From Arenibacter echinorum (GTDB lineage Bacteria > Bacteroidota > Bacteroidia > Flavobacteriales > Flavobacteriaceae): 64,000 nucleotides of DNA. Below the pieces are notes generated by a model. The model did no database searches, had not been told where the DNA came from, and saw only the letters and a program-made list of their open reading frames with translations. The stretch spans positions 1 to 64,000 of the forward strand of contig NZ_QLLN01000006.1 of the NCBI RefSeq assembly GCF_003259375.1. The letters are read 5' to 3'. Position numbers and translations under genes: made by a program. Positions 1-19,245 of the stretch are shown here, in pieces (within the stretch, counting starts at the first letter, position 1; the number at the start of each line of letters is the position of its first letter).

Positions 1-340
1 TCCTATGAAAAGCACTAGTCCAGTTCCTTAAAGTTAATATTTTATTTTTTATCAGTCCATATTGGTGATTTTGGGGTGTTGAATTGTTGGCAACCCTTGT
101 CAGCTTTTTACTTGGTTGTCAATACTTCAACACCATATATAACTTGCTCCGCATCCTATATGTGATCGATCCTAGATTATGAACGTCACCGGCATCTGTA
201 TGATTATAAGTTATAATAAGCCCGGCCACTTGCTATAAAAATGTGATCCCAATTCCTTGGGCCACCCACGTTGTTTTGTGGTACTGGCTTTGAATACTTC
301 GTTGTGAGCTTTGTTATCTGGTTGCTGTTTATCCTTTAGG
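1..340. other. Noncoding left edge: severed repeat left arm and IS110 flank
   Basis: No credible gene is seen here. Positions 126-140 read TCAACACCATATATA, which fits the left-arm pattern YAAC-N3-GTATA of the array elements described below (CAAC at 128-131, three bases, then ATATA). No matching right arm follows; the right half of such an element lies on the far side of the IS110 gene at 1482-1600. I therefore read 126 to about 190 as the left half of an interrupted element. The remaining bases up to the transposase stop would be IS sequence. In the IS1111 branch of the IS110 family a long noncoding right end carries the bridge RNA; whether this stretch does so is not visible by eye. Confidence 0.4.
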
Positions 341-1480
341 TTATTCCAATACCCCTATCACATAAGGGGTCTCCGTCTTTATTACCGCCAGTGTCCTGCT
401 CAGCAGTTTCCTGGCCACCTTTATGATAATGCTCTTTACGTTCTTGCCATGGTGCTTGCGGTAATAGGCCTGCATAACAGGATCCGCCCGTATCGCCTGC
501 CAGGCAGCCTCCACAAAGTAGGACCGGATCAAACGGTGCGCCCTTGGCGTTATCCCCAGTGTCCTATAATTACTTCCGCTCTGGTGCACCCCTGGGGCCA
601 GGCCTACATAGCCCGCCAGATGCTTTACGCTGTTGAACCTCCTCAGGTCCCCCAATTCACAAAGAATGCCGCATGCCACTATCCCTCCGATTCCGGGAAT
701 ACTCCGCAGCAGCATATAATCCTTCTTGTAGTGGACTTTGCAATACCTCCTGAGTTGGGTAGAAACATCGCGCAGTTCCTGATCCACGAAACGAAAAAAA
801 CGCATCCTGCTCTCCAAGGTCGCCTTCGCCGTGGGATATCCAAAGACCAAATCGTCCAACCACTTCCGATACTTGTGGCTCCAATGGTCGTTGTCGAACT
901 CCTCGGGTTCCTTGATACCAAAATAGAGCAACTGCATCTTGATGTAGCTCTTGATCCGCCTATAGTCCTTTACGAGATCGTTGCGCCTACGGAAAAGGCT
1001 CCTGAGCTGTTCCCGTTCCTTCCCTGGTACGTGGATGCTGTCCAGACGACCGTCCTTAAGTTCCCTACTCAGCAATTGAGCATCGATCATATCGGTCTTT
1101 GCATGGAGTTCCCGTCCCTTTCTGTGTACGTCGGCAGGGTTCACCACCATTGAACGCCAACCATAACCCTCAAAGCAACGATGGGCATGGTAACCACAGC
1201 AACCGGCCTCATAGACAACATTGACCTCATGTCCTGCAAAATGTTTGTCTACATACTTTCGTAAAAGTTCCGGATCGGGAGCCATGCTAAAGGATTTGCC
1301 TGAAAAAAGGTCCGTGGAACAATGAATCTTCCAGCTTCGTTTGTGTATATCGATACCAATGAATAACTTAGGTGTGGCAGTAATTTGAGTGTTCATATCT
1401 TTAAGGTTTTAGCTATAATTTAAAGATACTCGACTTACTGCTTTTTCATCGATGCTATAATTAATGGCTGGTTCTCACCT
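190..1480 (-). mobile_element. IS110-family insertion sequence, boundaries approximate
   Basis: The element is defined by the transposase gene on the minus strand plus flanking noncoding DNA. IS110-family elements typically lack long terminal inverted repeats and often make no target duplication, so the ends cannot be read directly. The proposed limits come from the two halves of an attC-like repeat: the left arm at 126-140 and the right half from 1482. That leaves about 1.3 kb, a normal size for this family. Confidence 0.5.
341..1396 (-). CDS. IS110-family transposase (RuvC-like DEDD plus Transposase_20 domain)
   Basis: This 351-residue protein is a full-length IS110/IS1111-type recombinase. 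The N-terminal RuvC-like domain has the four acidic residues of the DEDD site: D16 in GIDIHK, E63 in YEAGCCGY, and D102 and D105 in KTDMIDAQLLS. The C-terminal Transposase_20 region starts near residue 229 (LLRSIPGIGG) and keeps the serine of APGVHQSG (S273), which acts as the nucleophile in this family. Known members are guided by a bridge RNA made from noncoding DNA within the element. The gene is intact, so the element may still be active. It is the only minus-strand gene in the first 32 kb and interrupts the plus-strand cassette-like array. Confidence 0.95.
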   Translation of the reverse strand: MNTQITATPKLFIGIDIHKRSWKIHCSTDLFSGKSFSMAPDPELLRKYVDKHFAGHEVNVVYEAGCCGYHAHRCFEGYGWRSMVVNPADVHRKGRELHAKTDMIDAQLLSRELKDGRLDSIHVPGKEREQLRSLFRRRNDLVKDYRRIKSYIKMQLLYFGIKEPEEFDNDHWSHKYRKWLDDLVFGYPTAKATLESRMRFFRFVDQELRDVSTQLRRYCKVHYKKDYMLLRSIPGIGGIVACGILCELGDLRRFNSVKHLAGYVGLAPGVHQSGSNYRTLGITPRAHRLIRSYFVEAAWQAIRADPVMQAYYRKHHGKNVKSIIIKVARKLLSRTLAVIKTETPYVIGVLE

Positions 1481-1481
1481 A

Positions 1482-1600
1482 CTTACGAAAATCCACCCAC
1501 GCCCAAAAGCGTGGCAGGACGGATTTTCTATTTCGTTTGTATTTGCTAAATTAGGTGGTAAAAACACGCAACAAACCATATACAAACACGTTGGCAATAA
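1482..1600 (+). repeat. attC-like element AR1, right half (left half cut off by IS110)
   Basis: The segment has the right-hand part of the array element: a hairpin CCACGC-CCAAAA-GCGTGG followed by CAGGACGG (about 1495-1522), then ACCATATACAAACACGTTGGCA. The last part fits the right arm TATAC-N6-GTTR, with GTTG near 1589. The hairpin plus CAGGACGG motif recurs in AR14, AR15 and AR17. The matching left arm is found only at 126-140 on the other side of IS110. The following open reading frame starts 8 bases after the right end. Confidence 0.7.
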
Positions 1601-1607
1601 TTTAAAA

Positions 1608-1898
1608 ATGACAAATAGTACTACAAATAAACTTTTACTGATAAACGTAATTCTAATAGTTTTAATGTTTATCGCAAACGAATTTTGGACTGAATTAGGA
1701 CTAACCGATTCGTAAAACATTTATTACGCTTTAATCGGAATTATAATATTCGGAATCAGTACTGGTGGAATTTTTGTCGGAATTAAAGAACTGAAATCGA
1801 AGGGAAATAAAACTCTGATTGGACTAATTGGAAACTCAATTCTGACTTTACTTTTCTTAATTGCTTTTTTCTATATTGCTCTGACAATGGAAAGATAA
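1608..1898 (+). pseudogene. Small membrane protein broken by one in-frame stop
   Basis: Translation from ATG 1608 gives 35 residues with one hydrophobic segment (LLLINVILIVLMFIANEF) and then TAA at 1713-1715. The same frame continues cleanly for 60 codons to TAA 1896-1898. That second part contains two more membrane-like stretches (ALIGIIIFGISTGGIFVGI and LIGNSILTLLFLIAFFYIAL). A single base change would restore a protein of about 96 residues with three membrane segments. The family is not recognised. It lies alone between elements AR1 and AR2, like a one-gene cassette. Sequencing error is the main alternative to a real nonsense mutation. Confidence 0.6.
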
Positions 1899-1935
1899 AT
1901 GAATGATGACTGAATTGAATCTGAATAAAAAACTA

Positions 1936-2070
1936 TTGCCAACACCGTATTTAAAAAATGGCAGAATTTGCGCAAGCCATTTGGTTTGCGCTTTTTTATT
2001 ATCTTCCATCTATCGGAAAAGTATGTTTATTAAAATCAGCTACTTTTCATATACGGAGCCGTTATACCCA
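1936..2070 (+). repeat. attC-like element AR2
   Basis: The left arm is TTGCCAACACCGTATTT (CAAC-ACC-GTATT) and the right arm is CATATACGGAGCCGTTATA (TATAC-GGAGCC-GTTA). Between them lies a strong hairpin, GCGCAAGCC-ATTT-GGTTTGCGC, with one mismatch in nine pairs. The three extra bases on the right side leave unpaired bases when the arms pair, as in integron attC sites. The next gene starts 16 bases after the right end. Confidence 0.7.
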
Positions 2071-2085
2071 ATTAGAACATTATTA

Positions 2086-3264
2086 ATGAGAACAGCTATA
2101 GTTAAAATCATAACCCTAACATTTTCAATTTTAATTATAGTAACGTTATTTGGTTGTAACTCAAAAAATAAAGAGTCTATTAAAGATACTAAAAGGGTAA
2201 CTTCCCAAAATGTTCTTTCCGTTGTGATTGATTCTATTAATTCAGATATAAACAACGGAGATTATGGATTAATTGACCGCTTTATGGTCATTCGAAATGA
2301 CGAGTTATTGGCAGATTACAAATATGAACAGGACTATGAAACCATGGCTCAGAAATATGACACAGTCAATCATCAATTCAATTTCAATAGTACTGATTGG
2401 CATCCATACTACAAGCAAACTGAATTACATACCCTTCAGTCTGTCACCAAAAGCATTACTTCAATCCTTTTAGGTATTGCGTTGGATTTGAATGGGGATT
2501 ATAATGTTAGCAACAAAGCAATGCCTTTATTGACTGGTTATAATACTGACTTTCAAGATAAACAAAAGCAAAATATATCTATTGAAGATTTATTGACTAT
2601 GAGAAGTGGATTACAATGGAATGAAGAAACCGATCATAATGATACTACAAATGACTGTTTTAGGCTGGAATCAAGTGACAACTGGATAGAGTATGTATTG
2701 AGCAAACCTATGGATACTATACCGGGAACAAAATTCGTGTATAATGGTGGAGCAACTGTACTTCTAGGTAAAATCGTTAGAACCATTACGGGCAAACGAA
2801 TTGACGATTGGGCAGAAGAAAAATTATTTGAGCCACTCGGCATTACGGATTACTATTGGAAAGAAACGCCTTATGGAGAAATTGATACAGAAGGAGGTTT
2901 ATATCTTAAGGCAGAAGACTTGGCTAAAATTGGTATATTGTTTTTGAACAAAGGGAAATGGAATGACAAACAAATTGTATCAGAAAGTTGGGTCAATACA
3001 TCCACGAGCCCTTTAATCAAAGACGTAAAACCTGAATGGCGACGTGATATGGGATATGGCTATCAATGGTGGATTCCGGAATACACTAATAAAGGTGAAT
3101 CCAGTATTTATGCAGGCAATGGATATGGTGGACAGTATTTAATGATGGCACCTGAATACAATTTAATAATCATCTTTAATGGCTGGAATATTAATGATGA
3201 GCCTGAAAAGTCGACTTGGAGAGTTTTACAAGACAGAATAATCCCTACACTTAAGAATAAATAA
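2086..3264 (+). CDS. Serine hydrolase of the beta-lactamase / penicillin-binding protein family, lipoprotein
   Basis: This 392-residue protein belongs to the beta-lactamase-like serine hydrolases (PF00144-type), which act on peptides or esters and are often not true beta-lactamases. The catalytic SxxK is S119-V-T-K122, and a Y219-N-G stands where the family has the second motif. A C-terminal NGYGGQY replaces the usual HxG. The start at ATG 2086 is chosen because it gives a lipoprotein signal with the lipobox LFGC (C24). The upstream in-frame ATG at 1903 would run through repeat AR2. Lipidation suggests an envelope location. The gene is alone between AR2 and AR3, and its stop codon (3262-3264) overlaps the left arm of AR3. 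Confidence 0.88.
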   Translation: MRTAIVKIITLTFSILIIVTLFGCNSKNKESIKDTKRVTSQNVLSVVIDSINSDINNGDYGLIDRFMVIRNDELLADYKYEQDYETMAQKYDTVNHQFNFNSTDWHPYYKQTELHTLQSVTKSITSILLGIALDLNGDYNVSNKAMPLLTGYNTDFQDKQKQNISIEDLLTMRSGLQWNEETDHNDTTNDCFRLESSDNWIEYVLSKPMDTIPGTKFVYNGGATVLLGKIVRTITGKRIDDWAEEKLFEPLGITDYYWKETPYGEIDTEGGLYLKAEDLAKIGILFLNKGKWNDKQIVSESWVNTSTSPLIKDVKPEWRRDMGYGYQWWIPEYTNKGESSIYAGNGYGGQYLMMAPEYNLIIIFNGWNINDEPEKSTWRVLQDRIIPTLKNK

Positions 3265-3400
3265 CTGGGTATAAGAATGACTATAAGTAATTGGTTGTCC
3301 TCGTCTATTTTGGAGATTCCTGCGGAATTTCCAACTTGGCGTGTACTTTAAAAGTTAATCGCAAAACCACGCAACTAACCAAAGCCGAGACGTTGTACGT
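3262..3400 (+). repeat. attC-like element AR3
   Basis: The left arm is ATAACTGGGTATAAG (TAAC-TGG-GTATA) and shares its TAA with the stop codon of the serine hydrolase. The right end is GAGACGTTGTACG (GTTG near 3392). The inner part has an imperfect inverted repeat (GGAGATTCCTGCGGAATTTCC). The L' box of the right side is less clear than in AR2. Confidence 0.6.
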
Positions 3401-3410
3401 AATATAATTA

Positions 3411-4916
3411 ATGATGAAAAAGAATTTGATCTACTATTTCACGCTGCTAGTTTTCTTTAGCTATAATTATGATTCTATCGCTCAAAGTCAAGATCGGAAT
3501 AACTCCTTGGTTCTAAATAAGGCGACTCAAAAGCAACTAAAGGAATATGATAGTTTTTTCGTAGAAAATCATAAAAGACATATCAATGAGTTAGTTGAAC
3601 TGATTGCCATCCCGACCATGTCGATGCAACCAGAAAACAAGCCAGAACTCAAAAAAGCTGCAGACTTACTTAAAGACATGCTCCATACCATTGGTATGGA
3701 AAACACAGAAGTGTATTTCACCAATGAATTGCCAGTAGTTACTGCCACCTATACACGCCACAAAAGGCAACCTACCATCCTTTTTTATGGGCATTTTGAT
3801 GTGCAACCTGTCAATAAAGAACGTTGGAAAAGCGACCCATTTAGTGCAGAAATAAGAGATGAAAGGCTTTATGGAAGAGGAGCCACCGATGACAAGGGGC
3901 CTATTATTGCTTTAATTAGCGCAATAGAAGGATTGATAAAAGTGGATGGCAATCTTCCTGTCAACATCAAGCTACTATTGGATGGTGGCGAAGAAATGGG
4001 GAGTCCACATTTACCAATATGGTTAGCTTCAAATCAAGACTGGCTAAGTGACATTGATTTTGGAGTTAATGTAGATGCCATGATGAATAATGACAACCAA
4101 GGAATGATGTGGAAAGGACTACGAGGAGCCGCAGACCTTGAAGTCACTATTACTTCGGCAAATACCGATTTGCACTCAGGTATCTACGGAGGTGTTGCAC
4201 CAAATGCTGCTTTAGCAGCTTCTAAAGTGATTGCTTCCCTTTGGAATAAAGATGGATCAATAGCTATTAAAGGATTTTATGATGGCCTAAGGCAATATTC
4301 TGAAAAAGAACGAAAGGAAATTGCTGCTGTTGTAGACCAAGATCAACAAGCTAAGGATTTAAAGAAATTTGGCATCGACCAATGGATCGGAGAGAGAGAA
4401 TACTCCTTTTATGAGCGTCCTTGGATTCGTACCTCAGTAGACATTACAGGGTTTAAAGCTGGTTATACTCAAGGTAAGGCCTCTATTATACCTCACACTG
4501 CTTGGTTCAGAATGTTGGCAAGGACGGGGCCCGACCATGATCCTAAAGAAGTATTGGAAATGCTTAAAAAACACGTCAAAGATAGTCTCCCATGGGGATT
4601 GAAAGTGGATTTCAAAGAAAGTGTGATGGGCACTGCACCTGTTTTCGATGAAAGTGATTTGGGCTTTAGAATAGGCAAACAAGTATTAACAGACTTTTTC
4701 GGGACCCCACCGATCATACTTTATATTGGAGGTACCGTGCCGGCCCTATCGTCTATTCCCGATGGTGGTGGCCCAAATTTAGTTTCCGTAGGCTTTCAAA
4801 GGGGTGATGAAAATTTTCATGCTGACAATGAATATATGCGTATTGAGAGTTTCAAGAAAGGTCAGCGTATATACGTGAACTTGCTTCATGCATTTGTGAA
4901 TCAATTGAATGAATAA
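3411..4916 (+). CDS. M20-family metallodipeptidase, exported
   Basis: This 501-residue protein has an N-terminal signal peptide of about 25 residues and a complete M20 peptidase core. Zinc-site residues are visible: H128 and D130 in FYGHFDVQ, D160 in GRGATDDKG, and the catalytic and metal glutamates E194-E195 in DGGEEMGS. The GRGATDDKGP version is typical of the dipeptidase branch (carnosinase-like and CNDP-like) rather than ArgE. It probably hydrolyses dipeptides or short peptides in the periplasm. Two ATGs stand in tandem; the first is used here and the second would shorten the protein by one residue. It is the only gene between AR3 and AR4. Confidence 0.9.
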   Translation: MMKKNLIYYFTLLVFFSYNYDSIAQSQDRNNSLVLNKATQKQLKEYDSFFVENHKRHINELVELIAIPTMSMQPENKPELKKAADLLKDMLHTIGMENTEVYFTNELPVVTATYTRHKRQPTILFYGHFDVQPVNKERWKSDPFSAEIRDERLYGRGATDDKGPIIALISAIEGLIKVDGNLPVNIKLLLDGGEEMGSPHLPIWLASNQDWLSDIDFGVNVDAMMNNDNQGMMWKGLRGAADLEVTITSANTDLHSGIYGGVAPNAALAASKVIASLWNKDGSIAIKGFYDGLRQYSEKERKEIAAVVDQDQQAKDLKKFGIDQWIGEREYSFYERPWIRTSVDITGFKAGYTQGKASIIPHTAWFRMLARTGPDHDPKEVLEMLKKHVKDSLPWGLKVDFKESVMGTAPVFDESDLGFRIGKQVLTDFFGTPPIILYIGGTVPALSSIPDGGGPNLVSVGFQRGDENFHADNEYMRIESFKKGQRIYVNLLHAFVNQLNE

Positions 4917-4922
4917 ATACTA

Positions 4923-4995
4923 CTTACAACAAAGTATATGAGTTCATAGCACCCTAAGGGATGCAACATTTAATATACACGAACCGTTGGCAACA
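4923..4995 (+). repeat. attC-like element AR4 (short form)
   Basis: The left arm is CTTACAACAAAGTATATG (CAAC-AAA-GTATA). The right arm is ATATACACGAACCGTTGGCA (TATAC-N7-GTTG). The centre is only a short GCACCCTAAGGGATGC-like hairpin, so the whole element is about 73 bp, half the usual length. The next gene starts 18 bases downstream. Confidence 0.6.
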
Positions 4996-5012
4996 ATTAA
5001 ACCAATCGAAAA

Positions 5013-5948
5013 ATGAACAATATTACGAGAAATCAAATTTTATTATCCTTTTTCGTTTCCTTGCTGATGGTGAGTTGTCAATATAAACAAAGCACAGAAG
5101 AACGTTCAGAAAACACTACTTCAGACCAAATAGAAAGCACATCAAGTAAATCTGAAAAAGAAATAAAAGCTATACTGGAAAGGATCTTGGCTGCAGTTGG
5201 AAACCGGGATGCTCAAGAATTGGATGACCTGAGTTTCGACCAGGCCAATATCGCATATACGTATCCGAAGGATGGACAATGGCAGCATAAAGAGATGACT
5301 ATTGACTCGTATTTGCAAACCATCCGAGATATGAAAGATCCAAAGCCTATTTTAGAATCCGCCAATTCGTATAAGATAAATATAACCGAAGATCGATTGG
5401 CCTCAATAATAATGCCTACCGTCATTTCAAAATTCGGTGTTGCCAGTAGCAATGAGGTTAATCATGCTATAATGATGAAAGACAGTGACCAATGGAAACT
5501 GTTAAGTATTTCATGGACCGCTCACCGTATTCCCGAAGAAGAAAGAGAATTCGACTTAAATCTCTATGCACATAACTATGCACAAGTCTGGGGAAGTAAC
5601 CGACCTGAGTTTGTTGCTATGTTTTATGCTGAAGACGGTTCATTACAAGTGAATGACGGAGAACCTGCCGTTGGTAGAAATGCCATTACAAATGTTGCTA
5701 AAGGATTTATGGACGCTTTTCCTGATATGATTGTTTCAATGGATAGTCTAATTACTAAATCGGACAAAAAACGATTCTATTGGACACTGACTGGAACAAA
5801 TGACGTACCAAATGGAACTGGTAAGAAAGTTAAAATTAGTGGATTTGAAGAATGGATATTAAATGATGATGGATTAATCCAAGAATCAAAAGGCCATTTT
5901 GATGAAAAAGAATACAAGCGACAACTTGAATTTGGAACGGATAAATAA
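5013..5948 (+). CDS. Lipoprotein with SnoaL / NTF2-like domains
   Basis: The 311-residue product begins with a lipoprotein signal ending at LMVSC. The mature part contains two stretches that look like SnoaL/DUF4440 alpha-beta cones, at about 45-170 and 180-300. The second has the typical helix and strand pattern VGRNAITNVAKGFMDAFPDM followed by a strand reading FYWTLTGTNDVPNGTGKKVKISGFEEW. Proteins of this group bind small hydrophobic ligands or act as isomerases; no function can be assigned here. It is a one-gene unit between AR4 and AR5. Confidence 0.75.
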   Translation: MNNITRNQILLSFFVSLLMVSCQYKQSTEERSENTTSDQIESTSSKSEKEIKAILERILAAVGNRDAQELDDLSFDQANIAYTYPKDGQWQHKEMTIDSYLQTIRDMKDPKPILESANSYKINITEDRLASIIMPTVISKFGVASSNEVNHAIMMKDSDQWKLLSISWTAHRIPEEEREFDLNLYAHNYAQVWGSNRPEFVAMFYAEDGSLQVNDGEPAVGRNAITNVAKGFMDAFPDMIVSMDSLITKSDKKRFYWTLTGTNDVPNGTGKKVKISGFEEWILNDDGLIQESKGHFDEKEYKRQLEFGTDK

Positions 5949-5954
5949 TAACTA

Positions 5955-6090
5955 CAGCCAACAATGTATATTTAAAATAGGCGGAACAATGTTGAAACAC
6001 AGCTTTTGACTCATATCAAAGTTTGCGATTAACCGAATGTACAGTGCTTCGTAACCGCTTTCTTTTCATATACTTAAGGTTGGCAGTAAG
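5955..6090 (+). repeat. attC-like element AR5
   Basis: The left arm is CAGCCAACAATGTATATT (CAAC-AAT-GTATA). The right arm is TCATATACTTAAGGTTGGCA (TATAC-N5-GTTG). The element is about 135 bp long. The next gene starts 27 bases after the right end. Confidence 0.68.
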
Positions 6091-6116
6091 CATGAACAAA
6101 CACTACAACAAACACA

Positions 6117-6629
6117 ATGAGACTTCCACCATACGACAAATTTCCAAGTATTTCGGGCGACAAAATATTGTTGCGACAAATTCAATTTTCCGACATCAAT
6201 GACATTATTGAAATTTCATTCTACGACTCTATTCAAGCTACAACATTGACACAAGCAATAGAAATGCAAGCCAAAATAAATGTGGACTACAGTAACGGAA
6301 ATTCAATACACTGGGGTATTGCAGACAAATTAACAAATAAGATTGTTGGAACATGCGGTTATTATCGTGGACTTGACAAAGGCGAAGGAGAACTGGGTTG
6401 TGTTTTATTACCTCAATACCGTGGACAAGGATATATGACTTTGGCAATGTTATTAGCAATTGAATTTGGACTAAATAATATTGGACTAAAACGCATTTGG
6501 GCTATAACAACTAAACAAAACGAAAAAGCAATAAAACTAATTGAGAAACTTAACTTTATTAAAATTGCAGATGTGGAGGACAATGAAGTAGAATACGAAT
6601 TAAGACAAGATTTAAATCTAGCAGATTAA
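6117..6629 (+). CDS. GNAT-family N-acetyltransferase
   Basis: The 170-residue protein matches the RimJ/RimL-type GNAT fold. It starts with a strand reading ILLRQIQFSDIND. The acetyl-CoA pyrophosphate loop is QYRGQGYM at 100-107, followed by a long helix and the C-terminal block NEKAIKLIEKLNFIK. It would transfer an acetyl group from acetyl-CoA to an amine; the substrate (amino-sugar, peptide N-terminus or antibiotic) is not indicated. The gene is alone between AR5 and AR6, a common cargo type in mobile cassettes. Confidence 0.88.
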   Translation: MRLPPYDKFPSISGDKILLRQIQFSDINDIIEISFYDSIQATTLTQAIEMQAKINVDYSNGNSIHWGIADKLTNKIVGTCGYYRGLDKGEGELGCVLLPQYRGQGYMTLAMLLAIEFGLNNIGLKRIWAITTKQNEKAIKLIEKLNFIKIADVEDNEVEYELRQDLNLAD

Positions 6630-6643
6630 TGGATAAAATGCCT

Positions 6644-6780
6644 ACCGCTAACAGGTGTTTGGCTCAATGGCGGGTGACGTGGTTAATTTAACATTCTGCC
6701 TCGCATCAATTTTTGTGCTATATTGACAGTTATGTGCTCTGAAATCCGCCACTGCACCAACCGCCGAAAAGTTAGCATAT
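6644..6780 (+). repeat. attC-like element AR6
   Basis: This is one of the clearest elements. The left arm GCTAAC-AGGT-GTTTGGCTCAATGGCGG pairs with the right arm, whose reverse complement begins GCTAAC, has an eight-base gap, and continues GGTTGGTGCAGTGGCGG. The inner block agrees at 14 of 17 positions. The right side therefore carries four more unpaired bases than the left, the asymmetry expected of an attC site. The right end GTTAGCA is at 6771-6777. Confidence 0.72.
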
Positions 6781-6803
6781 ATACTAGTACAATTTTAAAC
6801 TAA

Positions 6804-7034
6804 TTCAAAAAACTGAAAGACTTTTTTGTAAATACGATAGACACCTATCCAATCTATACGGGAATATTATTTTTACTGCTAGGAATTTTAATCTTTGCGT
6901 ATCAGATTAATAAAAATGAAACATTCAATATGAACAAGCACGGACTTGCTTCATGGAAAGCTTTTGTAAATACCTGGGGAGTTGCAATCATGTTAACACT
7001 TTGGGGAATAATTTTGATTATAAGAAATTATTAA
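6804..7034 (+). pseudogene. Small two-helix membrane protein without a usable start codon
   Basis: After a stop at 6801-6803 the frame stays open for 76 codons and ends at TAA 7032-7034, four bases before the next start. The translation has two membrane segments (YTGILFLLLGILIFAYQI and TWGVAIMLTLWGIILII) and reads as a normal small membrane protein. No ATG, GTG or TTG precedes the first helix. The only candidate is CTG at 6813; the next in-frame ATG lies between the helices. Either the start codon has mutated or CTG is used. It shares a unit with the SRPBCC gene that follows. Confidence 0.45.
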
Positions 7035-7037
7035 TTT

Positions 7038-7502
7038 ATGCCAAGAATCGAATTGCGAACAGAAATAAATGCACCTAAAGAAATTGTTTTCGACCTATCT
7101 CGGAGTATTGACTTGCATAAAATCTCAACACAACACACAAATGAAGAGGCCATTGATGGAATTACAACTGGCCTAATTGGACTGAACGAATCTGTCACTT
7201 GGAAAGCCAAACACTTTGGGATTTATCAAAATCTTACATCAAAAGTGACTGAGTTTGACCGACCAAACTATTTTGCAGACGAAATGGTTAAAGGTGCTTT
7301 CAAAAGTTTTAAACACGAACATCATTTTACGGACTTAAATCAAGGAACTCTAATGACGGACTTTTTTGAATACGAGTCACCAACAGGTATCTTAGGAAAG
7401 TTAGCGGACAAGTTGTTTCTCAAAAAGTATATGATGGATTTGCTCGAAAAACGCAATCAAACCATAAAAGAGTTTGCTGAGCGGACAATTGGAAAAAAGT
7501 AA
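7038..7502 (+). CDS. SRPBCC-family protein (polyketide cyclase / START-like fold)
   Basis: This 154-residue protein has the SRPBCC signature: an opening strand IELRTEINAPKEIVFDLSRSID, a central GLNESVTWKAKHFG strand pair, and a long C-terminal helix LLEKRNQTIKEFAE. Such proteins form a deep hydrophobic cavity and bind or modify small lipids and aromatic compounds; no catalytic residue can be named. It follows the start-less membrane ORF by three bases, so the two were probably co-expressed. The unit is bounded by AR6 and AR7. Confidence 0.82.
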   Translation: MPRIELRTEINAPKEIVFDLSRSIDLHKISTQHTNEEAIDGITTGLIGLNESVTWKAKHFGIYQNLTSKVTEFDRPNYFADEMVKGAFKSFKHEHHFTDLNQGTLMTDFFEYESPTGILGKLADKLFLKKYMMDLLEKRNQTIKEFAERTIGKK

Positions 7503-7523
7503 TTCCGGAATAAAAAGTAAGTA

Positions 7524-7660
7524 TGCTAACACGGTGTATAATTAATTGCGGTCAGAATTTCCACTTGGAAATTCTCGCAATCAATTATCTTTAGCGTACG
7601 GGCGGACATTTTCCGTTGGAAAAGTCCGCATCTAACCATAAACTAGACCGTTGTAAGTAA
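7524..7660 (+). repeat. attC-like element AR7
   Basis: The left arm is TGCTAACACGGTGTATAATT (TAAC-N5-GTATA). The right arm is ACCATAAACTAGACCGTTGT (ATAAAC-TAGACC-GTTG). Two internal hairpins are visible: AGAATTTCC-ACTT-GGAAATTCT and GCGGACATTTTCCGTTGGAAAAGTCCGC. The next gene starts at the TTG at 7685. Confidence 0.7.
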
Positions 7661-7684
7661 TTTAAACCATAATCACCACAAACA

Positions 7685-8248
7685 TTGGAAAAATTAAAAG
7701 CATACTTCATTCAAGCTGGGTTTAGCGAAATTGATGTTGAAAAAATAACCAACGTCTTTCATTTCAAACAATTTAATAAAGGTGATTTTTTTATTAAAGA
7801 GGGAAAAATTACCAATCAACTCGCATTTATAGATGAAGGTTCTTTTCAATATTATTCCTTGTCAAAAGGAGAGGAACGCACTACCTACATTGCGCTTCAA
7901 AACTCTTTTGTCGCATCACTTTTAAGTTATTTGAGAGAAATACCTTCAAGGGAAAATATAAGAGCCTTAACAAAAGCTACCTTGTGGATTATTGACAAAA
8001 AAAATGTAGTTAAACTGCAAAATGAAGTTCCTGCATTTAAGGAATTTTATATTGGCCTTATAGAATGGCAAATTTGCTGTATCGACAAAAGCAAGTTTGA
8101 CCTACTGACGCTTACGGCGGACGAGCGTTATAAAAAACTAATGGAAGAAGAACCTGAAATTTTACAGCAAATACCTTTGCAATACATCGCATCAATGATG
8201 GGAATTACACAAAGACATTTGAGTAGATTACGAAAAAATATTTGCTAA
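7685..8248 (+). CDS. Crp/Fnr-family transcription regulator 1
   Basis: The 187-residue protein has a cyclic-nucleotide-binding-like beta-roll (about 20-115, with FNKGDFFIKEGKITNQLAFIDEGSF) and a short C-terminal helix-turn-helix. That helix-turn-helix is YIASMMGITQRHLSRLRKN, with which the chain ends. The conserved cAMP-contact residues of E. coli Crp are absent, as in most Bacteroidota members of this type. The start is TTG at 7685; no ATG fits. A 16-bp dyad lies 10 bases after its stop in the promoter of the next gene, so it probably controls the genes that follow. It opens a multi-gene unit between AR7 and AR8. Confidence 0.88.
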   Translation: MEKLKAYFIQAGFSEIDVEKITNVFHFKQFNKGDFFIKEGKITNQLAFIDEGSFQYYSLSKGEERTTYIALQNSFVASLLSYLREIPSRENIRALTKATLWIIDKKNVVKLQNEVPAFKEFYIGLIEWQICCIDKSKFDLLTLTADERYKKLMEEEPEILQQIPLQYIASMMGITQRHLSRLRKNIC

Positions 8249-8257
8249 AAAGTAGTT

Positions 8258-8302
8258 TTGGACATTTGTCCAATAAAAACAACATTACTTGAAGCAATTT
8301 TG
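8258..8302 (+). promoter_or_regulatory. Crp/Fnr operator and promoter for the gene at 8327
   Basis: A perfect dyad TTGGACA-TT-TGTCCAA occupies 8258-8273. A -7 box of the Bacteroidota type, CAATTTTG (consensus TAnnTTTG), lies at 8295-8302. From dyad start to -7 start is 37 bp, which places the dyad centre near -41.5 if transcription starts about five bases after the box. The same spacing is found behind regulators 2, 3 and 5. Confidence 0.65.
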
Positions 8303-8326
8303 CATCATCATTTTAAATAAAAAGAT

Positions 8327-8782
8327 ATGCAAAAAAATGTTTTATTAGTTGTGTTACTTTTAATAGCAAGCGCAACATTCGCTCAAAGTAAATTTCCTGA
8401 AAATCAATTGAGCATCAATGGATTTAGAAACCCATCTATTGGATTGGAGTACCAACGCAATCAATTTTCAATTCACGCAGGTTATTATCCTACCAATTTT
8501 GAAAGTGGTGTAACCACCGAATTTTTAAAAGCAGGCATAACCTATTGGTTTCTTCCTGTTGATGAAAAAGAAATTCCATCCTCTTTTTACGGCGGACTGT
8601 CCTATTTGAGAGGTACTACAAGGGTGTATAAAGATGAAAATGCCTTGGGAGTAGAAGCAGGTTTTCGTTGGTATGTTTGGAAAGGCTTAAACTTTCGTAT
8701 AGGTGTAATTGCACTAACAGCTGAAGGAAAGGATTTAAAAATTAACCCAACACCAAGTATCAGTTATTCATTCAAATTCTAA
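8327..8782 (+). CDS. Small outer-membrane beta-barrel-like protein
   Basis: The 151-residue product has a cleavable signal peptide (LLLIASATFAQ). Its mature sequence is made of alternating strands rich in aromatic residues, ending with PSISYSFKF; a terminal phenylalanine is typical for outer-membrane barrels. The family is not recognised. It directly follows the regulator-1 operator, with 24 bases between the -7 box and the start codon, and is the likely first target gene. The frameshifted DUF4386 gene begins seven bases downstream. Confidence 0.65.
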   Translation: MQKNVLLVVLLLIASATFAQSKFPENQLSINGFRNPSIGLEYQRNQFSIHAGYYPTNFESGVTTEFLKAGITYWFLPVDEKEIPSSFYGGLSYLRGTTRVYKDENALGVEAGFRWYVWKGLNFRIGVIALTAEGKDLKINPTPSISYSFKF

Positions 8783-8788
8783 ACGATA

Positions 8789-9477
8789 ATGAAAACTGAA
8801 AAAACCATTGGAATTTTACTGATTGTTGGAGTCATCGGCATTTTCGTTCCCTATACTATCTTGACAATGATATTTGAATATCCAACCATATTAAGGCAAG
8901 ATACAGGCACTATTTTAATAAAATTTTATAATGGTGGTAATCCTTTAATATGGACTTGGTGGGCTTTTGCAATATTAGGTCTACCCATATTGGAAGCTTG
9001 TATTTTAATAGGCCAAAAGATAGAATCTAAATTTTACTTTGTAAGATTGGCAACAATTCTTGGTGTCATTGGCTTAATGGTTCAAGTATTAGGATTATTG
9101 CGCTGGACCTTCGTTGTACCAGTTTTAGCCAAAGATTTTGTGCTTGGTAACGAGATGACAAAAGAAGCGGTAACTGTTGCGTTTAAAGTAGTTCACCAAT
9201 ATGGAGGAATCATTTTAGGCGAACACATCGGACAGTTATTTACGATTGCTTGGACAGTTATGATAACGTCTGCGTTTGAAAAACTTAAACTCTTCCCAAA
9301 GTGGATTATATGGCTTGGATATGCCGCGTCAATTATTTATTTGCACAAGCAGAGTTATTCTCAACAGTGATTCCAAATTTCCCTGTATGGAATATAGCAG
9401 GATTTTTAGGTAGTACGATTTGGCTAATATGGTTATTGATAATTGGTATTAAATTCATAAAAACAGAAATCCATTAA
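8789..9477 (+). pseudogene. DUF4386 membrane protein with a frameshift near the C-terminus
   Basis: The first frame (8789-9370) gives 193 residues with about five membrane helices typical of DUF4386. After WIIWLGYAASIIYL it goes out of frame and ends at TGA 9370. The expected C-terminus is present in another frame: AQAELFSTVIPNFPVWNIAG and a last helix GSTIWLIWLLIIGIKFI, ending at TAA 9475-9477. One base appears to be missing near 9340-9345, where TATTTGCACAAG would read TATTTTGCACAAG. Without the shift the protein would have about 229 residues, the usual length. A sequencing error is possible. It follows the barrel gene within the regulator-1 unit. Confidence 0.75.
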
Positions 9478-9556
9478 CAAGAAAAAAGTTGCATTAATTT
9501 GTAACAAAATCCGAGTTGAAATCACCTATAGCATATAAACATTTAAAACAACTAAT

Positions 9557-9955
9557 TTGATCACAAAAATTTTATTGACAGCAAGCGCATTCTTTTTGGG
9601 ACTGATGGGAATTGGTTAGTCCTTTTTGCCAAATGAAATATTCATATATTTAAATATGGGCTCAAATCCCATTTTATATCTTCTACTTCAATTATTAGGC
9701 GCACTCTATCTTGGATTAGGAATTATGAATTGGATGGCGAAAGGCACATTGATTGGAGGAATTTATAATAGGCCTATGGCAATTGGAAATTTTATGCATT
9801 TTGGTGTTTGGGCAATCACTTTAGTGAAAATTGTATTCGGAATCAAAGTACATACTGAAATTATAATTTCACTTACAGTTATTTACACTATTCTAGCTTT
9901 ATGTTTTGAATATGTATTTCTAACTAATCCAATTAAAGTCGGAACCGAAAAATAA
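9557..9955 (+). pseudogene. Small four-helix membrane protein with an in-frame amber stop
   Basis: The frame starts with TTG at 9557, reads ITKILLTASAFFLGLMGIG, and meets TAG at 9617-9619. It then continues as SFLPNEIFIYLNMGSNPILY and on to 9955. The downstream part alone would be 109 residues from TTG 9626. Joined, the protein has about 132 residues and four hydrophobic helices, with the conserved-looking MNWMAKGTLIGGIYNRPMAI loop. I recall similar unnamed proteins in Bacteroidota that start before this stop, so a truncated start at 9626 is less likely. It lies in the regulator-1 unit. Confidence 0.55.
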
Positions 9956-9960
9956 AACAA

Positions 9961-10698
9961 ATGAAAAAAACACTTTACATTTTACTGATTATTTTTGGAG
10001 CCTCTGTTCGTGTATTTAGTCAGGAAACACTATTAAGTCCATTAAATAATCCAGCTCACAAAAACCTTATAAAGTCCGAAACTTCGGAAATGACTTGGTT
10101 TATGCTTAAAGATTCTCTTATAGTAGAAATAGGAAATGTGCAAACTAAAATTCAGAAAGAAAAAGAGCGACTATATATTATAACAACAGTCAATATGAAA
10201 CAGTCTCCTAATGAATGGATTGACAGTACAATCGTTGAAACACTGAACTTTAAACCTATATATCATTCTTCATTCAACCAACAGAGAGATATGGTATTGA
10301 AATTTGGAAAAAAAATTACAGGCTATTATTTTGATAAACAAACAGAAACTAAAACGCAGATTTCTGAAGTCGCTGACAAGCCTTTTTTTGACAGTAATTT
10401 CTACCCTCAATTAATAAGATTCCTGCCATTAAAAGATACATATTCAAGCACTATTTCTATTTTTGACTATAACCCCAGCTCCGTAATTGGAATAATTACT
10501 GCAACAATAAAAAACACAGAACAGACCACTATAAGTTTCAATGGAAAGAAGAGACAAGTTTGGAAAGTTGAAACTACAGATGACATTTCAAACAACGCTG
10601 CTATAAGCACATATTACATAGATACATCGACAAGAAAAGTACTTATATAATCAATTGATTTTGGCAGCATAAAAATGCTGATGGAATTAGTAGAATAG
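9961..10698 (+). pseudogene. Secreted protein resembling DUF3108, with a stop 16 codons before the natural end
   Basis: The open frame 9961-10650 encodes 229 residues with a signal peptide (YILLIIFGASVRVFSQ). Its beta-rich body ends TYYIDTSTRKVLI followed by TAA. Reading on in frame gives SIDFGSIKMLMELVE and a TAG at 10696-10698. Proteins with this tail pattern usually close with a strand such as this, so the TAA at 10648-10650 looks like a late nonsense change. The product may still fold. Function is unknown; the DUF3108-like resemblance is weak. It is the last gene of the regulator-1 unit. Confidence 0.5.
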
Positions 10699-10741
10699 GG
10701 AAAAACACACATCGTATATGAACTATAGCTAGCATTAATTT
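10660..10741 (+). repeat. attC-like element AR8, degenerate
   Basis: Only the right end is recognisable: CGTATATGAACTATAGCTAGC followed by ATTAATTT, which resembles the TATAC-N6-GTTAGC-ATTAATT right ends of other elements with GTTAGC changed to GCTAGC. A left arm cannot be recognised. It lies at the expected place between two genes of the array. Confidence 0.35.
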
Positions 10742-10758
10742 AAGAAACTCGAACTAAA

Positions 10759-11232
10759 TTGGAGATTATAGAAAAATATAAAAACGAATATCTGATTTCA
10801 ACAGATAGTAAAAAATTGGAGATTTCATCAATTCACAATTTTTTGACCAACGAATCTGGATGGAGTAATGGAATTTCATTTGATAAGGTAAAAAAATCAA
10901 TAAATAATTCCTTGAATTTCGGAATGTATCTTGACTCAAAATTAATTGGTTATGCAAGAGTTATTTCAGACTTTTCTACTATCGCATATCTTGGAGATAT
11001 TTTTATTTTAAAAGAATATCGAGGACTTGGGTTGAGTAAATGGCTTATGGAAACAATTATGGATCATAAACATTTACAAGATTTAAGACGTTGGATTTTA
11101 TTGACAAGCACAGCGGAGTGGCTCTATGAAAAATACGGATTTACAAAACTACCCAAACCAGAAATCTATATGGAAAAATTTAATCCGAATGTTTACCAAA
11201 ATAAGGAACAAACTAATGCCAACAATGTATAA
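10759..11232 (+). CDS. GNAT-family N-acetyltransferase
   Basis: The 157-residue protein is a compact GNAT. Motif A is LGDIFILKEYRGLGLSKWLM at about 75-94, with the acetyl-CoA loop YRGLGLS, followed by LTSTAEWLYEKYGFTKLPKPE. The latter is the usual end of the group related to YjdJ/Ypea-like small-molecule acetyltransferases. Start is TTG 10759. The last codons (TNANNV and TAA) lie inside the left arm of AR9, so the repeat supplies the stop codon. The natural protein may have ended earlier before joining the repeat. Confidence 0.85.
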   Translation: MEIIEKYKNEYLISTDSKKLEISSIHNFLTNESGWSNGISFDKVKKSINNSLNFGMYLDSKLIGYARVISDFSTIAYLGDIFILKEYRGLGLSKWLMETIMDHKHLQDLRRWILLTSTAEWLYEKYGFTKLPKPEIYMEKFNPNVYQNKEQTNANNV

Positions 11233-11368
11233 CTGCAATTACGGCTCATTCGACTACGTCCGAATCCACTCGCAATTGATATTGTCAGTGCTAGACCGAA
11301 AATAATGGCTAATTTGCCCCTCGCTAGCCATAATTTCCTTTGACAAAAAAGTGAAGGTATATAAATTT
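11217..11368 (+). repeat. attC-like element AR9, no clear right arm
   Basis: The left arm TGCCAACAATGTATAACTGC (CAAC-AAT-GTATA) overlaps the end of the GNAT gene. The inner part holds an inverted repeat AATGGCTA...TAGCCATAA (about 11308-11336). It runs directly into the left arm of AR10 without a GTTR right end. This suggests a deletion or a recombination joining two elements. Confidence 0.5.
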
Positions 11369-11511
11369 CATACAACACCGTGTATAAGCCATTGCTTGTT
11401 CAGCGCTAATCTGGAAAATCCTATCGGATTTCCCAACGCAGTTTTGTACTTTTAATGGTTCGTGCCGAGACACGCAACGGCCCATACACAAAAACGATGA
11501 TGTTGCATTAG
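11369..11511 (+). repeat. attC-like element AR10
   Basis: The left arm is CATACAACACCGTGTATAAG (CAAC-N5-GTATA). The right side is CCATACACAAAAACG-ATGAT-GTTGCATTAG, which is the normal right arm with five extra bases before GTTG. An inner hairpin GGAAAATCC-TATC-GGATTTCC is present. No gene lies between AR9 and AR10. Confidence 0.55.
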
Positions 11512-11667
11512 TTCATATCATTTTTATTTTATTTTAAAGGAATTCATATGTTCGCTGCGCTCGGAACTCCTACGTCGAGCCTATGTGCTACATCTCGTGT
11601 GCCAACGCCCCAACTCGCCGACTGCTGTCGCAGATGTCGCCCGCACAAAGGGAAATGCAACATCATC
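11496..11667. repeat. 172-bp segment bounded by a perfect 14-bp inverted repeat
   Basis: GATGATGTTGCATT at 11496-11509 is repeated in inverted form as AATGCAACATCATC at 11654-11667. The left copy overlaps the right end of AR10. The 144 bases between have no convincing gene; an 84-codon frame here has atypical composition. A tract at about 11600-11640 (CCAACGCCCCAACTCGCC then ACTGCTGTCGCAGATG) recurs at 11847-11884. It could be a small non-autonomous mobile repeat or another class of folded recombination site. Confidence 0.5.
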
Positions 11668-11841
11668 CCAGCGCTATGTCAGATCACATAAAACCGAAGG
11701 ATAAGAGTACTTTTTCTTCGAACGACGCTCAACGGAAGAAATCAACGCAACATATCAAGTCACTATATGTAATCTATTCATGCCATTTCCATTGTATTAA
11801 AACCCATCCAGAAAAGGTTTTCACTATATTTCCATAAAATA

Positions 11842-11910
11842 TCGCACCAACGCTACAACTCGCCCACTGCTCTCGCAGATGGCGTACATAGCGCTGCGTT
11901 AGCAGCAAGC
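11842..11910 (+). repeat. attC-like element AR11 of a different sequence class
   Basis: The left part ACCAACGCTACAACTCGCCC matches the direct repeat near 11602-11640. The right end CGCTGCGTTAGCAGCAAGC carries GTTAGC preceded by GCGC, and is partly complementary to the left (CAACGC against GCGTTAG). This sub-type is more GC-rich than the other elements. The next gene starts 14 bases downstream at ATG 11924. Confidence 0.45.
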
Positions 11911-11923
11911 ACAAAAAACAAAT

Positions 11924-12493
11924 ATGGAATTAACAGATACAATAAATCAAGTAGTCAATCTGACGAAGGATGAAAAATTATCTATCGAAAAGTATTTTAC
12001 AGTTAAAACTTTACCCAAAGGAGGATTATGGATTAAAGAAGGTCAATACTGTAACCATATAGCTTTTATTAAAAAAGGGATTTGTCGGATATTCTATAAT
12101 GACCAGGATGGGAATGAAATCAGTTGTTTCTTTATGCCTGAAAACAATTTCATTTCTTCGTATACGAGCTTTTTAACGCTAACCCCAACTAAGGAAAATA
12201 TTGAAGCCGTTGAGGATTTAGAAATGCTGGTTATTAATAGAGAAGATTTAGAGAAATTATCTAAAGAGGTTCCAAAAGTTCAAATCTGGAGAAGAGTTAT
12301 TGCTGAAAACCTATTTATTCTTTTGGAAAGACGTATTTCAATGCTTCAATCCAAAACGGCACAAGAACGTTATGAAAATCTGATTAAAGAAAATGGCGAT
12401 ATCCTTCTAAAGGTACCATTACAATACACCGCTAGTTTTCTTGGTGTTACCCCACAACACCTTAGTAGATTAAGAAAAAATAGTGTAAAGTGA
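11924..12493 (+). CDS. Crp/Fnr-family transcription regulator 2
   Basis: The 189-residue protein has the beta-roll sensor domain (KTLPKGGLWIKEGQYCNHIAFIKKG at about 28-52) and a short terminal helix-turn-helix, YTASFLGVTPQHLSRLRKN. Its recognition helix (PQHLSRLRKN) closely resembles that of regulator 1 (QRHLSRLRKN), and its putative operator is also similar. No ligand can be inferred. It heads the unit with the NAD(P)-binding epimerase gene; the intervening promoter carries the operator at 12497-12512. Confidence 0.88.
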   Translation: MELTDTINQVVNLTKDEKLSIEKYFTVKTLPKGGLWIKEGQYCNHIAFIKKGICRIFYNDQDGNEISCFFMPENNFISSYTSFLTLTPTKENIEAVEDLEMLVINREDLEKLSKEVPKVQIWRRVIAENLFILLERRISMLQSKTAQERYENLIKENGDILLKVPLQYTASFLGVTPQHLSRLRKNSVK

Positions 12494-12496
12494 TTT

Positions 12497-12541
12497 CTTA
12501 ACATTTGTTCAGTGGCTACACATTTATCTCTCCCATTTTTG
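12497..12541 (+). promoter_or_regulatory. Crp/Fnr operator and promoter for the gene at 12584
   Basis: The dyad CTTAACA-TT-TGTTCAG spans 12497-12512 (one mismatch in seven pairs). The -7 box CATTTTTG lies at 12534-12541. Dyad start to -7 start is again 37 bp. The core ACATTTGT is identical to that of the operator behind regulator 1. Confidence 0.62.
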
Positions 12542-12583
12542 TAGTGTAATTAATAATAACACTCACAAATAAAATTAGAACAA

Positions 12584-13510: not shown

Positions 13511-13518
13511 AACGCGAG

Positions 13519-13650
13519 CTGCTAACAAGGTATAAAAGCAATAGCGATTTGGGTATCTAATAGAACCGTTTTTGCATTTGATTAGGTATATTACACAGTA
13601 AAGTAAGTGCAGCTAATCCGCTACTGCTCTTATACAAAAGCGTTATGTGT
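13519..13650 (+). repeat. attC-like element AR12
   Basis: This is a clear element. The left arm is CTAAC-AAG-GTATAAAAGCAATAGCGATT. The reverse complement of the right arm is ATAAC-GCTTTT-GTATAAGAGCAGTAGCGGATT. The arms pair well over GTATAA and AGC(A)AGTAGCG, with three more bases unpaired on the right. Confidence 0.72.
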
Positions 13651-13700
13651 AATTTTGAATCCCAAGTAAAAAAGCAACCAAACAAATTAAATCTAAAAAA

Positions 13701-14234: not shown

Positions 14235-14244
14235 TGAGAAAACT

Positions 14245-14380
14245 ACATACAACACCGTTAAAAATTCATGTTCAATTTTGTTTCTAACACAAAGTTTTTT
14301 CACTTTTATACAACTGATTTTCCGATGGAAAATCAGCCGCGTGTTTACACGCACAAACCATACAAAAGACCGTTAGCCTT
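14245..14380 (+). repeat. attC-like element AR13
   Basis: The left arm is ACATACAACACCGTTAAAAA (CAAC-ACC-GTTAA). The right arm is ACCATACAAAAGACCGTTAG (ATAC-N8-GTTA). Inner hairpin GATTTTCC-GAT-GGAAAATC. The next gene starts nine bases after the right end. Confidence 0.66.
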
Positions 14381-14388
14381 AATAAAAA

Positions 14389-15552: not shown

Positions 15553-15561
15553 AAATTACTA

Positions 15562-15720
15562 AGGCTAACAACGCATAAAAATAATTAGGTAGTTATTGCT
15601 TAATCAAAGTTTAGTACCGTTTTGTTACGTTTGATTTTCCTCCACGCTAAAAAGCGTGGCAGGACGGAGAGTCCGCGCACACAAAACCGCACTATTCCCA
15701 AACATAAACATTAGGTACAA
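15562..15720 (+). repeat. attC-like element AR14
   Basis: The left arm is GGCTAACAACGCATAAAAAT (TAAC-AAC-GCATA). The right end is AAACATAAACATTAGGTAC, with GTTAG changed to ATTAG. The middle has CCACGCT-AAAA-AGCGTGG followed by CAGGACGG. About 95 bases (from 15574) are identical to AR15 apart from one base. Confidence 0.7.
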
Positions 15721-19234: not shown

Positions 19235-19245
19235 CTGTGCATACA

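What the first reader, a model, noticed from the sequence alone, without database searches (positions are those of the whole stretch)
126..1600. IS110 element appears inserted inside an attC-like site
A left arm (CAAC-ACC-ATATA, 128-139) and a right half (1482-1600) of one element flank an intact IS110-type transposase gene, with about 1.3 kb between them. In integrons the IS1111-attC group of this same family targets attC sites. A targeted insertion would be independent support for the attC nature of these repeats.
Basis: partly seen in the sequence, partly recalled or inferred. Interest (0 to 1): 0.72.

Follow-up and report, generated by a model that had tools for sequence, protein, structure and literature searches.

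The report
RNA-guided jumping gene inside integron cassette site
A small jumping gene that seems to carry its own guide RNA has landed at one exact point in the recombination site of a gene-capture system of a marine bacterium, and its relatives appear to do the same across the Bacteroidota, with guides that change along with the sites they hit.

Summary
Window 1-1455 is an IS110-family element of IS1111 type (transposase 341-1396, minus). The contig starts at the element's first base. The 'left arm' at 128-139 is inside the element; the true left half of the interrupted site is at the end of another contig, C13. A related genome (G016) holds the uninterrupted site: C13's flank joins window 1456 without duplication or loss. 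Relatives sit at the same point, after AACA plus 4-6 nt of the site's 5' end (59 of 61 flanks). The predicted bridge RNA has two target guides (267-275, 234-242) that covary with each copy's flanks (0 of 20,000 shuffles as good) and two probable donor guides. The sites behave as integron attC sites: left arms are complementary to the start of their own cassette, not to their array neighbour; the array is headed by a divergent tyrosine integrase and an attI-like segment followed, after GTT, by a different cassette in each of five congeneric genomes. That integrase lacks about 40 residues present in VchIntIA, where, as recalled, helix I2 lies: the boldest reading is an I2-less integron.

The parts
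1..1455 (-). Complete IS110-family (IS1111-type) insertion sequence, 1455 bp; with the TA core counted at the tnp-left end, 1457 bp
   Evidence: Ends set by the empty allele in G016 and by full-length relatives that begin at base 1 and end at GATGC|TA
341..1396 (-). DEDD transposase, 351 aa, with the motif GLAPGVHQSG
   Evidence: NCBIfam NF033542 212 bits
4..14 (.). Subterminal inverted repeat, tnp-right end (TATGAAAAGCA), 3 bp from the end
   Evidence: imperfect, one indel against the other end
1438..1450 (.). Subterminal inverted repeat, tnp-left end (GATGAAAAAGCAG read on the minus strand), 5 bp from the end, 7 bp with the TA core
135..300 (-). Predicted bridge/seek RNA: two stem-loops, each with an internal loop; ends approximate
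   Evidence: Consensus and single folds of 67 homologous sequences and swapped-arm controls; the single window sequence is not more stable than its shuffles
267..275 (-). Target guide 1 (RNA AACAACGUG); matches the last 9 nt of the left flank (AACACCGTG), 8 of 9
   Evidence: Covariation with own left flank over 54 loci and over 27 clusters
234..242 (-). Target guide 2 (TATAAAAAT read in target sense); matches the right flank TATAATTAA, 6 of 9
   Evidence: Covariation with own right flank over 45 loci
192..196 (-). Probable donor guide for the 1455 end (GCATC, reverse complement of GATGC)
   Evidence: Sequence identity and place in the second internal loop; no covariation test made
154..159 (-). 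Probable donor guide for the base-1 end (TCCTAT)
   Evidence: Sequence identity and place in the second internal loop; no covariation test made
1456..1592 (+). Right part of the interrupted attC-like element; the left part, ending ACAACACCGTG, is at the end of contig C13 outside the window
1590..2060 (+). Cassette 1 (from GTT to the base before the next GTT), absent from G016
128..139 (+).

Best explanation
Window 1-1455 is an IS1111-type, RNA-guided transposon inserted at a fixed point in an attC-type cassette recombination site. Inferred mechanism: the noncoding region downstream of the transposase gives a bridge RNA; its first internal loop pairs with the two sides of the target (AACANNNNN | TANNNN, the 5' end of the attC-like site), and its second loop pairs with the element's own ends. 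The transposase joins circle and target without a duplication. Shown by comparison: the exact ends, the empty site, the fixed position and orientation, and guide-target covariation. Inferred: RNA transcription, the circular intermediate and catalysis. Probable consequence (inferred): the arm next to the upstream cassette is separated by 1.5 kb from the rest of its site, which should block that cassette's excision.
For: Empty allele in G016, no gap at the junction, 238 of 267 aligned positions identical. AACA starts 9 nt before the left end in 54, 10 nt in 4, 8 nt in 1 of 61 flanks. Guide 1, variable positions only: 203 of 270 matches against a shuffled mean of 125 and maximum of 156 in 20,000; guide 2: 195 of 225 against 152, maximum 177. 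Guide 1 still holds with one member per cluster, 27 clusters. The first two target bases (TA 40, TT 4, TC 1) equal the guide in 45 of 45 loci, though the extraction required T as the guide's first base. Two-loop RNA fold with hairpin arms that pair better than swapped arms. Family evidence.
Against: The window copy's own guides are imperfect (8 of 9 and 6 of 9). Over 54 loci guide 1 matches 9 of 9 in 18, 8 in 12, 7 in 14 and only 6 in 10. The window RNA alone is no more stable than its shuffles (z -0.49). 2 of 61 flanks lack AACA at the expected distance. A strict right-end motif is found in only 29 of 53 right flanks, against 188 of 1340 random pieces. Shuffles do not fully remove relatedness. 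The left flank of the C6 contig is not assembled; linking C13 to C6 rests on synteny with G016. No RNA or transposition data.
Confidence: 0.92

Rival explanations
1. The insertion is real, but the elements are ordinary dispersed repeats (REP-like hairpins between genes) rather than recombination sites, as with ISPa11 and REP sequences.
For: IS1111 elements are known to target REP hairpins (PMC11187229, passages). The elements are long and of several sequence types.
Against: Left arms are complementary to the start of their own cassette and not to their array neighbour (115 of 160 against 54 of 144; rule-based version). The integrase-proximal segment is conserved up to GTT and then differs in each of five genomes. 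G016 lacks cassette 1, the next cassette starting at GTT. One exact GTT-to-GTT unit is shared by contigs C3 and C13.
Confidence: 0.05
2. One reading: the left half is 128-139 and the inserted element spans about 140 to 1481.
For: 128-147 (CAACACCATATATAACTTGC) resembles the element's 5' end by eye.
Against: Full-length relatives begin at window base 1, and the empty allele lacks 1-1455 as a whole. The stretch is not conserved among relatives and does not covary with their targets.
Confidence: 0.01
3. The insertion point is a hotspot set by the DNA hairpin or by the transposase alone, and the guide similarity is inherited, not functional.
For: AACA is shared by nearly all copies, so part of the match is constant; related copies live in related hosts.
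Against: The variable guide positions follow the target across 27 sequence clusters, including distant members with other targets: AACAAAACC, AACACAACC, AACAGCACC and AACAAAGCA match exactly; rare TT and TC cores are matched too.
Confidence: 0.04

Closest known systems
IS1111-attC elements (ISKpn4, ISPst6, ISPa25)
   Same: IS1111-type element in one end of attC sites, guided by an RNA from the noncoding region downstream of tnp; no added bases at the target is stated there for IS1111 family members (PMC11187229: abstract, sections 6, 9, 13 and passages)
   Different: Hosts are Bacteroidota; the best-ranked plasmid-borne transposase is 31.5% identical (capped at 5000 records; ISKpn4 itself not compared); guides differ between lineages with the subtype of attC-like site; sites belong to an array whose integrase lacks about 40 residues present in VchIntIA
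IS621 / bridge RNA (IS110 group)
   Same: RNA with a target-binding and a donor-binding internal loop; DEDD transposase; guides found by covariation (PMC11208160, passages)
   Different: Noncoding region downstream, longer subterminal repeats, reversed strand order of the target guides; sequence similarity to the IS621 chain only over residues 223-345
Sedentary chromosomal integrons (Vibrio type)
   Same: Divergent integrase, attI-like segment, long array of mostly same-strand cassettes, cassette-wise complementarity of the arms, exchange at GTT (the integron side recalled)
   Different: Integrase below the IntI model cut-off and without about 40 residues of VchIntIA; conserved arm core is AAC/GTT with variable neighbours; several types of site in one array
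Bacteroidetes integrons in IntegronFinder 2.0
   Same: Integrons in the phylum
   Different: That survey reports In0 only in its earlier version and now one complete integron in Salinibacter ruber within Bacteroidetes, besides those in Chlorobi and Ignavibacteriae (PMC9024848, passages); the passages shown name no Flavobacteriaceae

Membership tests
IS110 family, IS1111 group | DEDD (RuvC) plus Transposase_20 transposase | tested here: met
IS110 family, IS1111 group | C-terminal motif GL-P----S(T)G | tested here: met
   GLAPGVHQSG in the translation; motif from PMC11187229 section 6
IS110 family, IS1111 group | Subterminal inverted repeats of 11-13 bp, perfect or near-perfect, with 7 and 3 bp extensions | tested here: inconclusive
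   TATGAAAA(A)GCA-type repeat with a one-base indel; best ungapped match 9 of 10 in the window copy; extensions 3 bp and 5 bp, 7 bp only if the TA core is counted; definition
IS110 family, IS1111 group | Long noncoding region downstream of tnp | tested here: met
   340 nt downstream against 59 nt upstream
IS110 family, IS1111 group | No target-site duplication | tested here: met
   Empty site in G016
IS110 family, IS1111 group | Top-strand guide 5' of bottom-strand guide in the RNA | tested here: met
   Guide 1 (267-275) precedes guide 2 (234-242) in the minus-strand RNA; strands assigned by reasoning in the orientation of tnp (order)
IS110 family, IS1111 group | Circular intermediate and RNA bound to the transposase | not testable with these tools
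   Needs an experiment
IS1111-attC subgroup | Insertion at a fixed point at one end of attC sites | tested here: met
   59 of 61 flanks; attC nature:
IS1111-attC subgroup | Transposase of the ISKpn4/ISPst6 or ISPa25 clade | not tested
   No ISKpn4, ISPst6 or ISPa25 sequence was compared; best-ranked plasmid match 31.5%
Integron (for the interrupted site) | attI with variable first cassette and divergent integrase | tested here: met
   149 nt next to the integrase 93-100% identical between G000, G016, G014 and G004; after GTT a different sequence in G000, G016, G014, G013 and G017 (G013 and G017 compared by eye); gene orders
Integron (for the interrupted site) | Cassette-wise complementarity of the outer arms (R'' with R') | tested here: met
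   the feature is recalled from general knowledge
Integron (for the interrupted site) | IntI integrase with the additional (I2) segment | tested here: not met
   192.8 bits against a cut-off of 265; alignment jumps from residue 202 to 246 of VchIntIA, the place of I2 being recalled; predicted model has no helix between 262 and 279, model of moderate quality
Integron (for the interrupted site) | Recombination of attC as a folded single strand | tested here: inconclusive
   The bottom strand of the G016 site folds better than the top (-23.8, z -3.1 against -16.8, z -1.2); no assay

The most novel reading that the evidence does not exclude
Arenibacter and some other marine Flavobacteriaceae carry a complete integron-like gene-capture platform (divergent integrase, attI, arrays of tens of cassettes) run by a tyrosine integrase that lacks the I2 segment thought necessary for cassette capture, and an IS1111-type bridge-RNA transposon lineage has specialised on attC sites of this kind across the Bacteroidota, re-tuning its guides to the attC subtypes it meets.
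Probability: 0.6. Interest if true: 0.87.

Novelty: new variant of a known kind. Interest (0 to 1): 0.7.

Why it matters
RNA-guided IS elements that hit attC sites were known from elements such as ISKpn4, ISPst6 and ISPa25. Here a lineage spread over many Bacteroidota genera does it, with natural changes of guide that follow changes of target, which gives a ready test set for how bridge RNAs are re-programmed in nature. It also exposes a gene-capture system that a search tied to canonical IntI could miss. Whether an integrase without helix I2 can shuffle cassettes bears on how integrons arose, and these strains make that testable.

Tried and rejected

Two separate insertions in C13 and C6: at first inferred from the exact 1465-bp overlap of the contig ends; the G016 synteny makes one insertion simpler. 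Copy number is left open.

G019 as a second empty allele: its left-flank gene matches (93%), but the site is rearranged, so it was not used.

Rfam over 1-21500: no match at gathering scores. Single-sequence RNA folding of the window copy: no better than shuffles, and its own minimum-energy fold does not show the outer stem of the target loop. The RNAalifold run found both stems of the target loop and the inner donor hairpin but not the outer donor stem, which was seen in single folds of other members. In the swapped-arm test the patterns failed for 10 of 67 target hairpins and 6 of 67 donor hairpins and took too long a stretch for at least two.

Cassette test by eye: 20 pairs used; elements near 10.7 kb, 11.2 kb, 17.8 kb and 19.5 kb of the window, the left half at 11.4 kb and single halves in C13 were left out because their core triplets could not be placed. 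The rule-based test includes many false elements and gives a weaker but still clear signal; there the same-element comparison is slightly above chance (755 of 20,000 shuffles as good).

Guide test: of 68 records, 4 had no readable guide 1, 1 had no left flank and 9 were duplicates of guide plus flank; 54 used, 45 for guide 2. The 61 flanks and 63 loci still contain duplicates.

Integrase: the best NCBIfam score is not IntI but a XerA-type model (NF040815, 202.7 bits, cut-off 220); no listed model reached its cut-off. Search for canonical IntI in 60 genomes: 0 of 60, but none of the 14 control genomes rang, so absence is not shown. A structure model of the integrase was only moderate (pLDDT 71, pTM 0.44), so no fold search was made.

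Full report
What is there. The window is the start of contig C6 of a 24-contig genome. Window 341-1396 (minus) encodes a 351-aa IS110-family transposase (NF033542 212 bits). All of window 1-1465 recurs, 100% identical, as the last 1465 bases of contig C13. In C13 it is preceded by ...AAACGCAGTACAACACCGTG. The element is 46.6% G+C against 34.2% for window 1456-20000.

Where the element ends. A search of 198 genomes, own included, gave matches in 26; the full-length ones begin at window base 1 and end between 1457 and 1470. Aligned flanks show TCCTATGAAAAG at the left end and GATGC|TA at the right end. Genome G016 holds the uninterrupted site: the C13 left flank joined to window 1456 onward aligns across the junction without a gap, with one substitution two bases before it, 238 of 267 positions identical overall. 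So the element is window 1-1455, there is no target duplication, and C13 and C6 most simply flank one insertion.

The same point in relatives. One scan of one-genome-per-species contigs found 82 places with a related transposase; the best 80 were kept, 77 distinct loci, mostly Flavobacteriaceae but also Saprospiraceae, Chitinophagales, Crocinitomicaceae and Pedobacter. A left end was placed in 67 of the 77, and a right end in 59 of the 68 records that include the window. Of 61 left flanks of at least 40 nt with a readable guide, duplicates not removed, AACA starts 9 nt before the element in 54, 10 nt in 4 and 8 nt in 1; every distance from 11 to 39 nt has 0-3. The right flank continues as the body of an attC-like element; a strict right-end motif is found in 29 of 53 flanks against 188 of 1340 random pieces of the same loci. 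Several misses end in a visible CGTT that the motif is too strict for; others do not. One Saprospiraceae target looks, by eye, like a short classical attC (locus L113).

The guide RNA. The region downstream of the transposase is conserved in two blocks. In RNA sense, the consensus of 67 sequences and single folds of several members give two stem-loops with internal loops. Hairpin arms pair better with their own partner than with swapped partners: mean pairs 5.9 against 4.7, maximum 5.3, for the target hairpin (40 distinct arm pairs), and 7.4 against 5.5, maximum 6.1, for the donor hairpin (37), 300 swaps each. The 5' side of the first loop (window 267-275) reads like the last nine bases of each copy's own left flank; its 3' side (234-242) reads like the first bases of the right flank. 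Over 54 non-redundant loci the variable positions of guide 1 match in 203 of 270 cases, shuffled mean 125, maximum 156 of 20,000 shuffles; 18 loci match 9 of 9, 12 match 8, 14 match 7 and 10 match 6. Guide 2 matches 195 of 225 over its first five bases, mean 152, maximum 177, and the first two bases agree in 45 of 45, including four TT and one TC (the extraction required T as the first guide base). With one member per 80% identity cluster (27 clusters) guide 1 still matches 0.757 of variable positions, and no shuffle was as good in 200 draws of 500. Distant members with other targets match exactly, such as AACACAACC, AACAGCACC, AACAAAGCA and AACACCATA. The second loop holds TCCTAT (154-159) and GCATC (192-196), which read like the element's two ends. 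The window copy itself matches its target at 8 of 9 and 6 of 9 positions.

Family. The downstream noncoding region, the GLAPGVHQSG motif, no duplication and the order of the guides fit the IS1111 group as described in PMC11187229 (sections 6, 9, 13 and passages); the subterminal repeats are imperfect and their extensions fit (7 and 3 bp) only if the TA core is counted. That paper already describes ISKpn4, ISPst6 and ISPa25 as elements that target attC sites with a guide RNA.

Are the sites attC? In an integron each cassette's outer arms pair with each other in the circle, so in the array the left arm of a site should match the start of its own cassette, not the right arm beside it (recalled from general knowledge of integrons). 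In 20 pairs chosen by eye from contigs C6, C13 and C15 the matches are 115 of 160 for the same cassette (shuffled mean 57, maximum 87 in 100,000) and, in 18 pairs, 54 of 144 for the array neighbour (mean 51). A rule-based set from four genomes gives 183 of 432 (mean 118, maximum 158) and 166 of 536 (mean 147).

The head of the array. Contig C3 begins, in reverse, with a 355-aa tyrosine recombinase pointing away from a cassette; this cassette, GTT to GTT, 1639 bases, is shared exactly with the start of C13. In G016 the integrase (C27:248099-249163) and sites at C27 205-229 kb are on one contig, on opposite strands; G014 and G004 have the same arrangement. Next to the integrase about 149 nt are 93-100% identical between G000, G016, G014 and G004; in G000, G016, G014, G013 and G017 the sequence switches at GTT to a different one, and G004 has another repeat there (G013 and G017 compared by eye). 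G023 shows a similar ATGTGTT junction; G028 is unclear. Relatives with at least 64% identity occur in 8 of 60 genomes, own included. The protein scores 192.8 bits against the integron-integrase model (cut-off 265) and 202.7 against a XerA-type model (cut-off 220); its alignment to VchIntIA jumps from chain residue 202 to 246. That this is where helix I2 lies is recalled. PMC7790495 (abstract and introduction read) says that I2 is necessary for cassette capture and is found in no other protein. So the platform works like an integron by comparison, but I do not file it as a canonical one.

Literature. Searches for integrons or attC with Bacteroidetes, Bacteroidota, Flavobacteria, Arenibacter, Maribacter or Zobellia, and for IS110 or bridge RNA with attC, listed no title or abstract that describes this system; two searches showed 20 of 35 and 20 of 89 papers. 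IntegronFinder 2.0 reports one complete integron in Salinibacter ruber for Bacteroidetes (passages). PMC8618304 lists Bacteroidota among phyla with integrons (passage). The library holds open-licence papers only.

Limits. Everything is comparative. The contig break leaves the copy number open. Shuffles do not fully remove relatedness. The effect of the insertion on cassette movement is inferred. The statement that the integrase acts on these sites rests on position and on the switch at GTT, not on an assay. Only the Arenibacter arrays were linked to this integrase; which enzyme serves the sites hit in other genera was not examined.

Noticed in passing
G000 C3 1-1639 and C13 1-1639 (L172, L173): Two contigs share exactly one cassette, from GTT to GTT, one copy beside the integrase. 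Suggests a duplicated cassette or mixed arrangements in the culture.
   Followed up: partly
G000 C13 22038-22055 (L048): An attC-like element carries a near copy of the first 18-19 bases of the IS left end (TCCTTTGTAAAGCACTAG) in place of its usual sequence: possible scar of an earlier insertion.
   Followed up: partly
L039-L042 (G105, G005, G071, G035): Isolated 39-50 bp copies of the IS left end, in all four cases after an AACA-bearing flank, without a DNA match to the rest of the element: decayed copies, scars or divergent elements with the same end.
   Followed up: no
window about 11490-11905; L013 about 5350-5815 and 8824-9285; L015; attI of G004: A recurring unit of about 0.5 kb (GATGTTGCATTAG...GCGCTGCGTT) sits between the right end of a site and the next cassette start and, in part, at attI of G004: a possible gene-poor cassette or a mobile unit of its own.
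   Followed up: no
window 1590-2060 against L170 (G016): A whole cassette is present in this strain and absent in G016, the next cassette starting at GTT in both; the end of the preceding site also differs.
   Followed up: partly
loci such as L182, L185, L187, L191, L192: A wider set of tyrosine recombinases of about 376-385 aa at roughly 39-45% identity to the integrase occurs in many Flavobacteriaceae; whether they also head cassette arrays was not examined.
   Followed up: no
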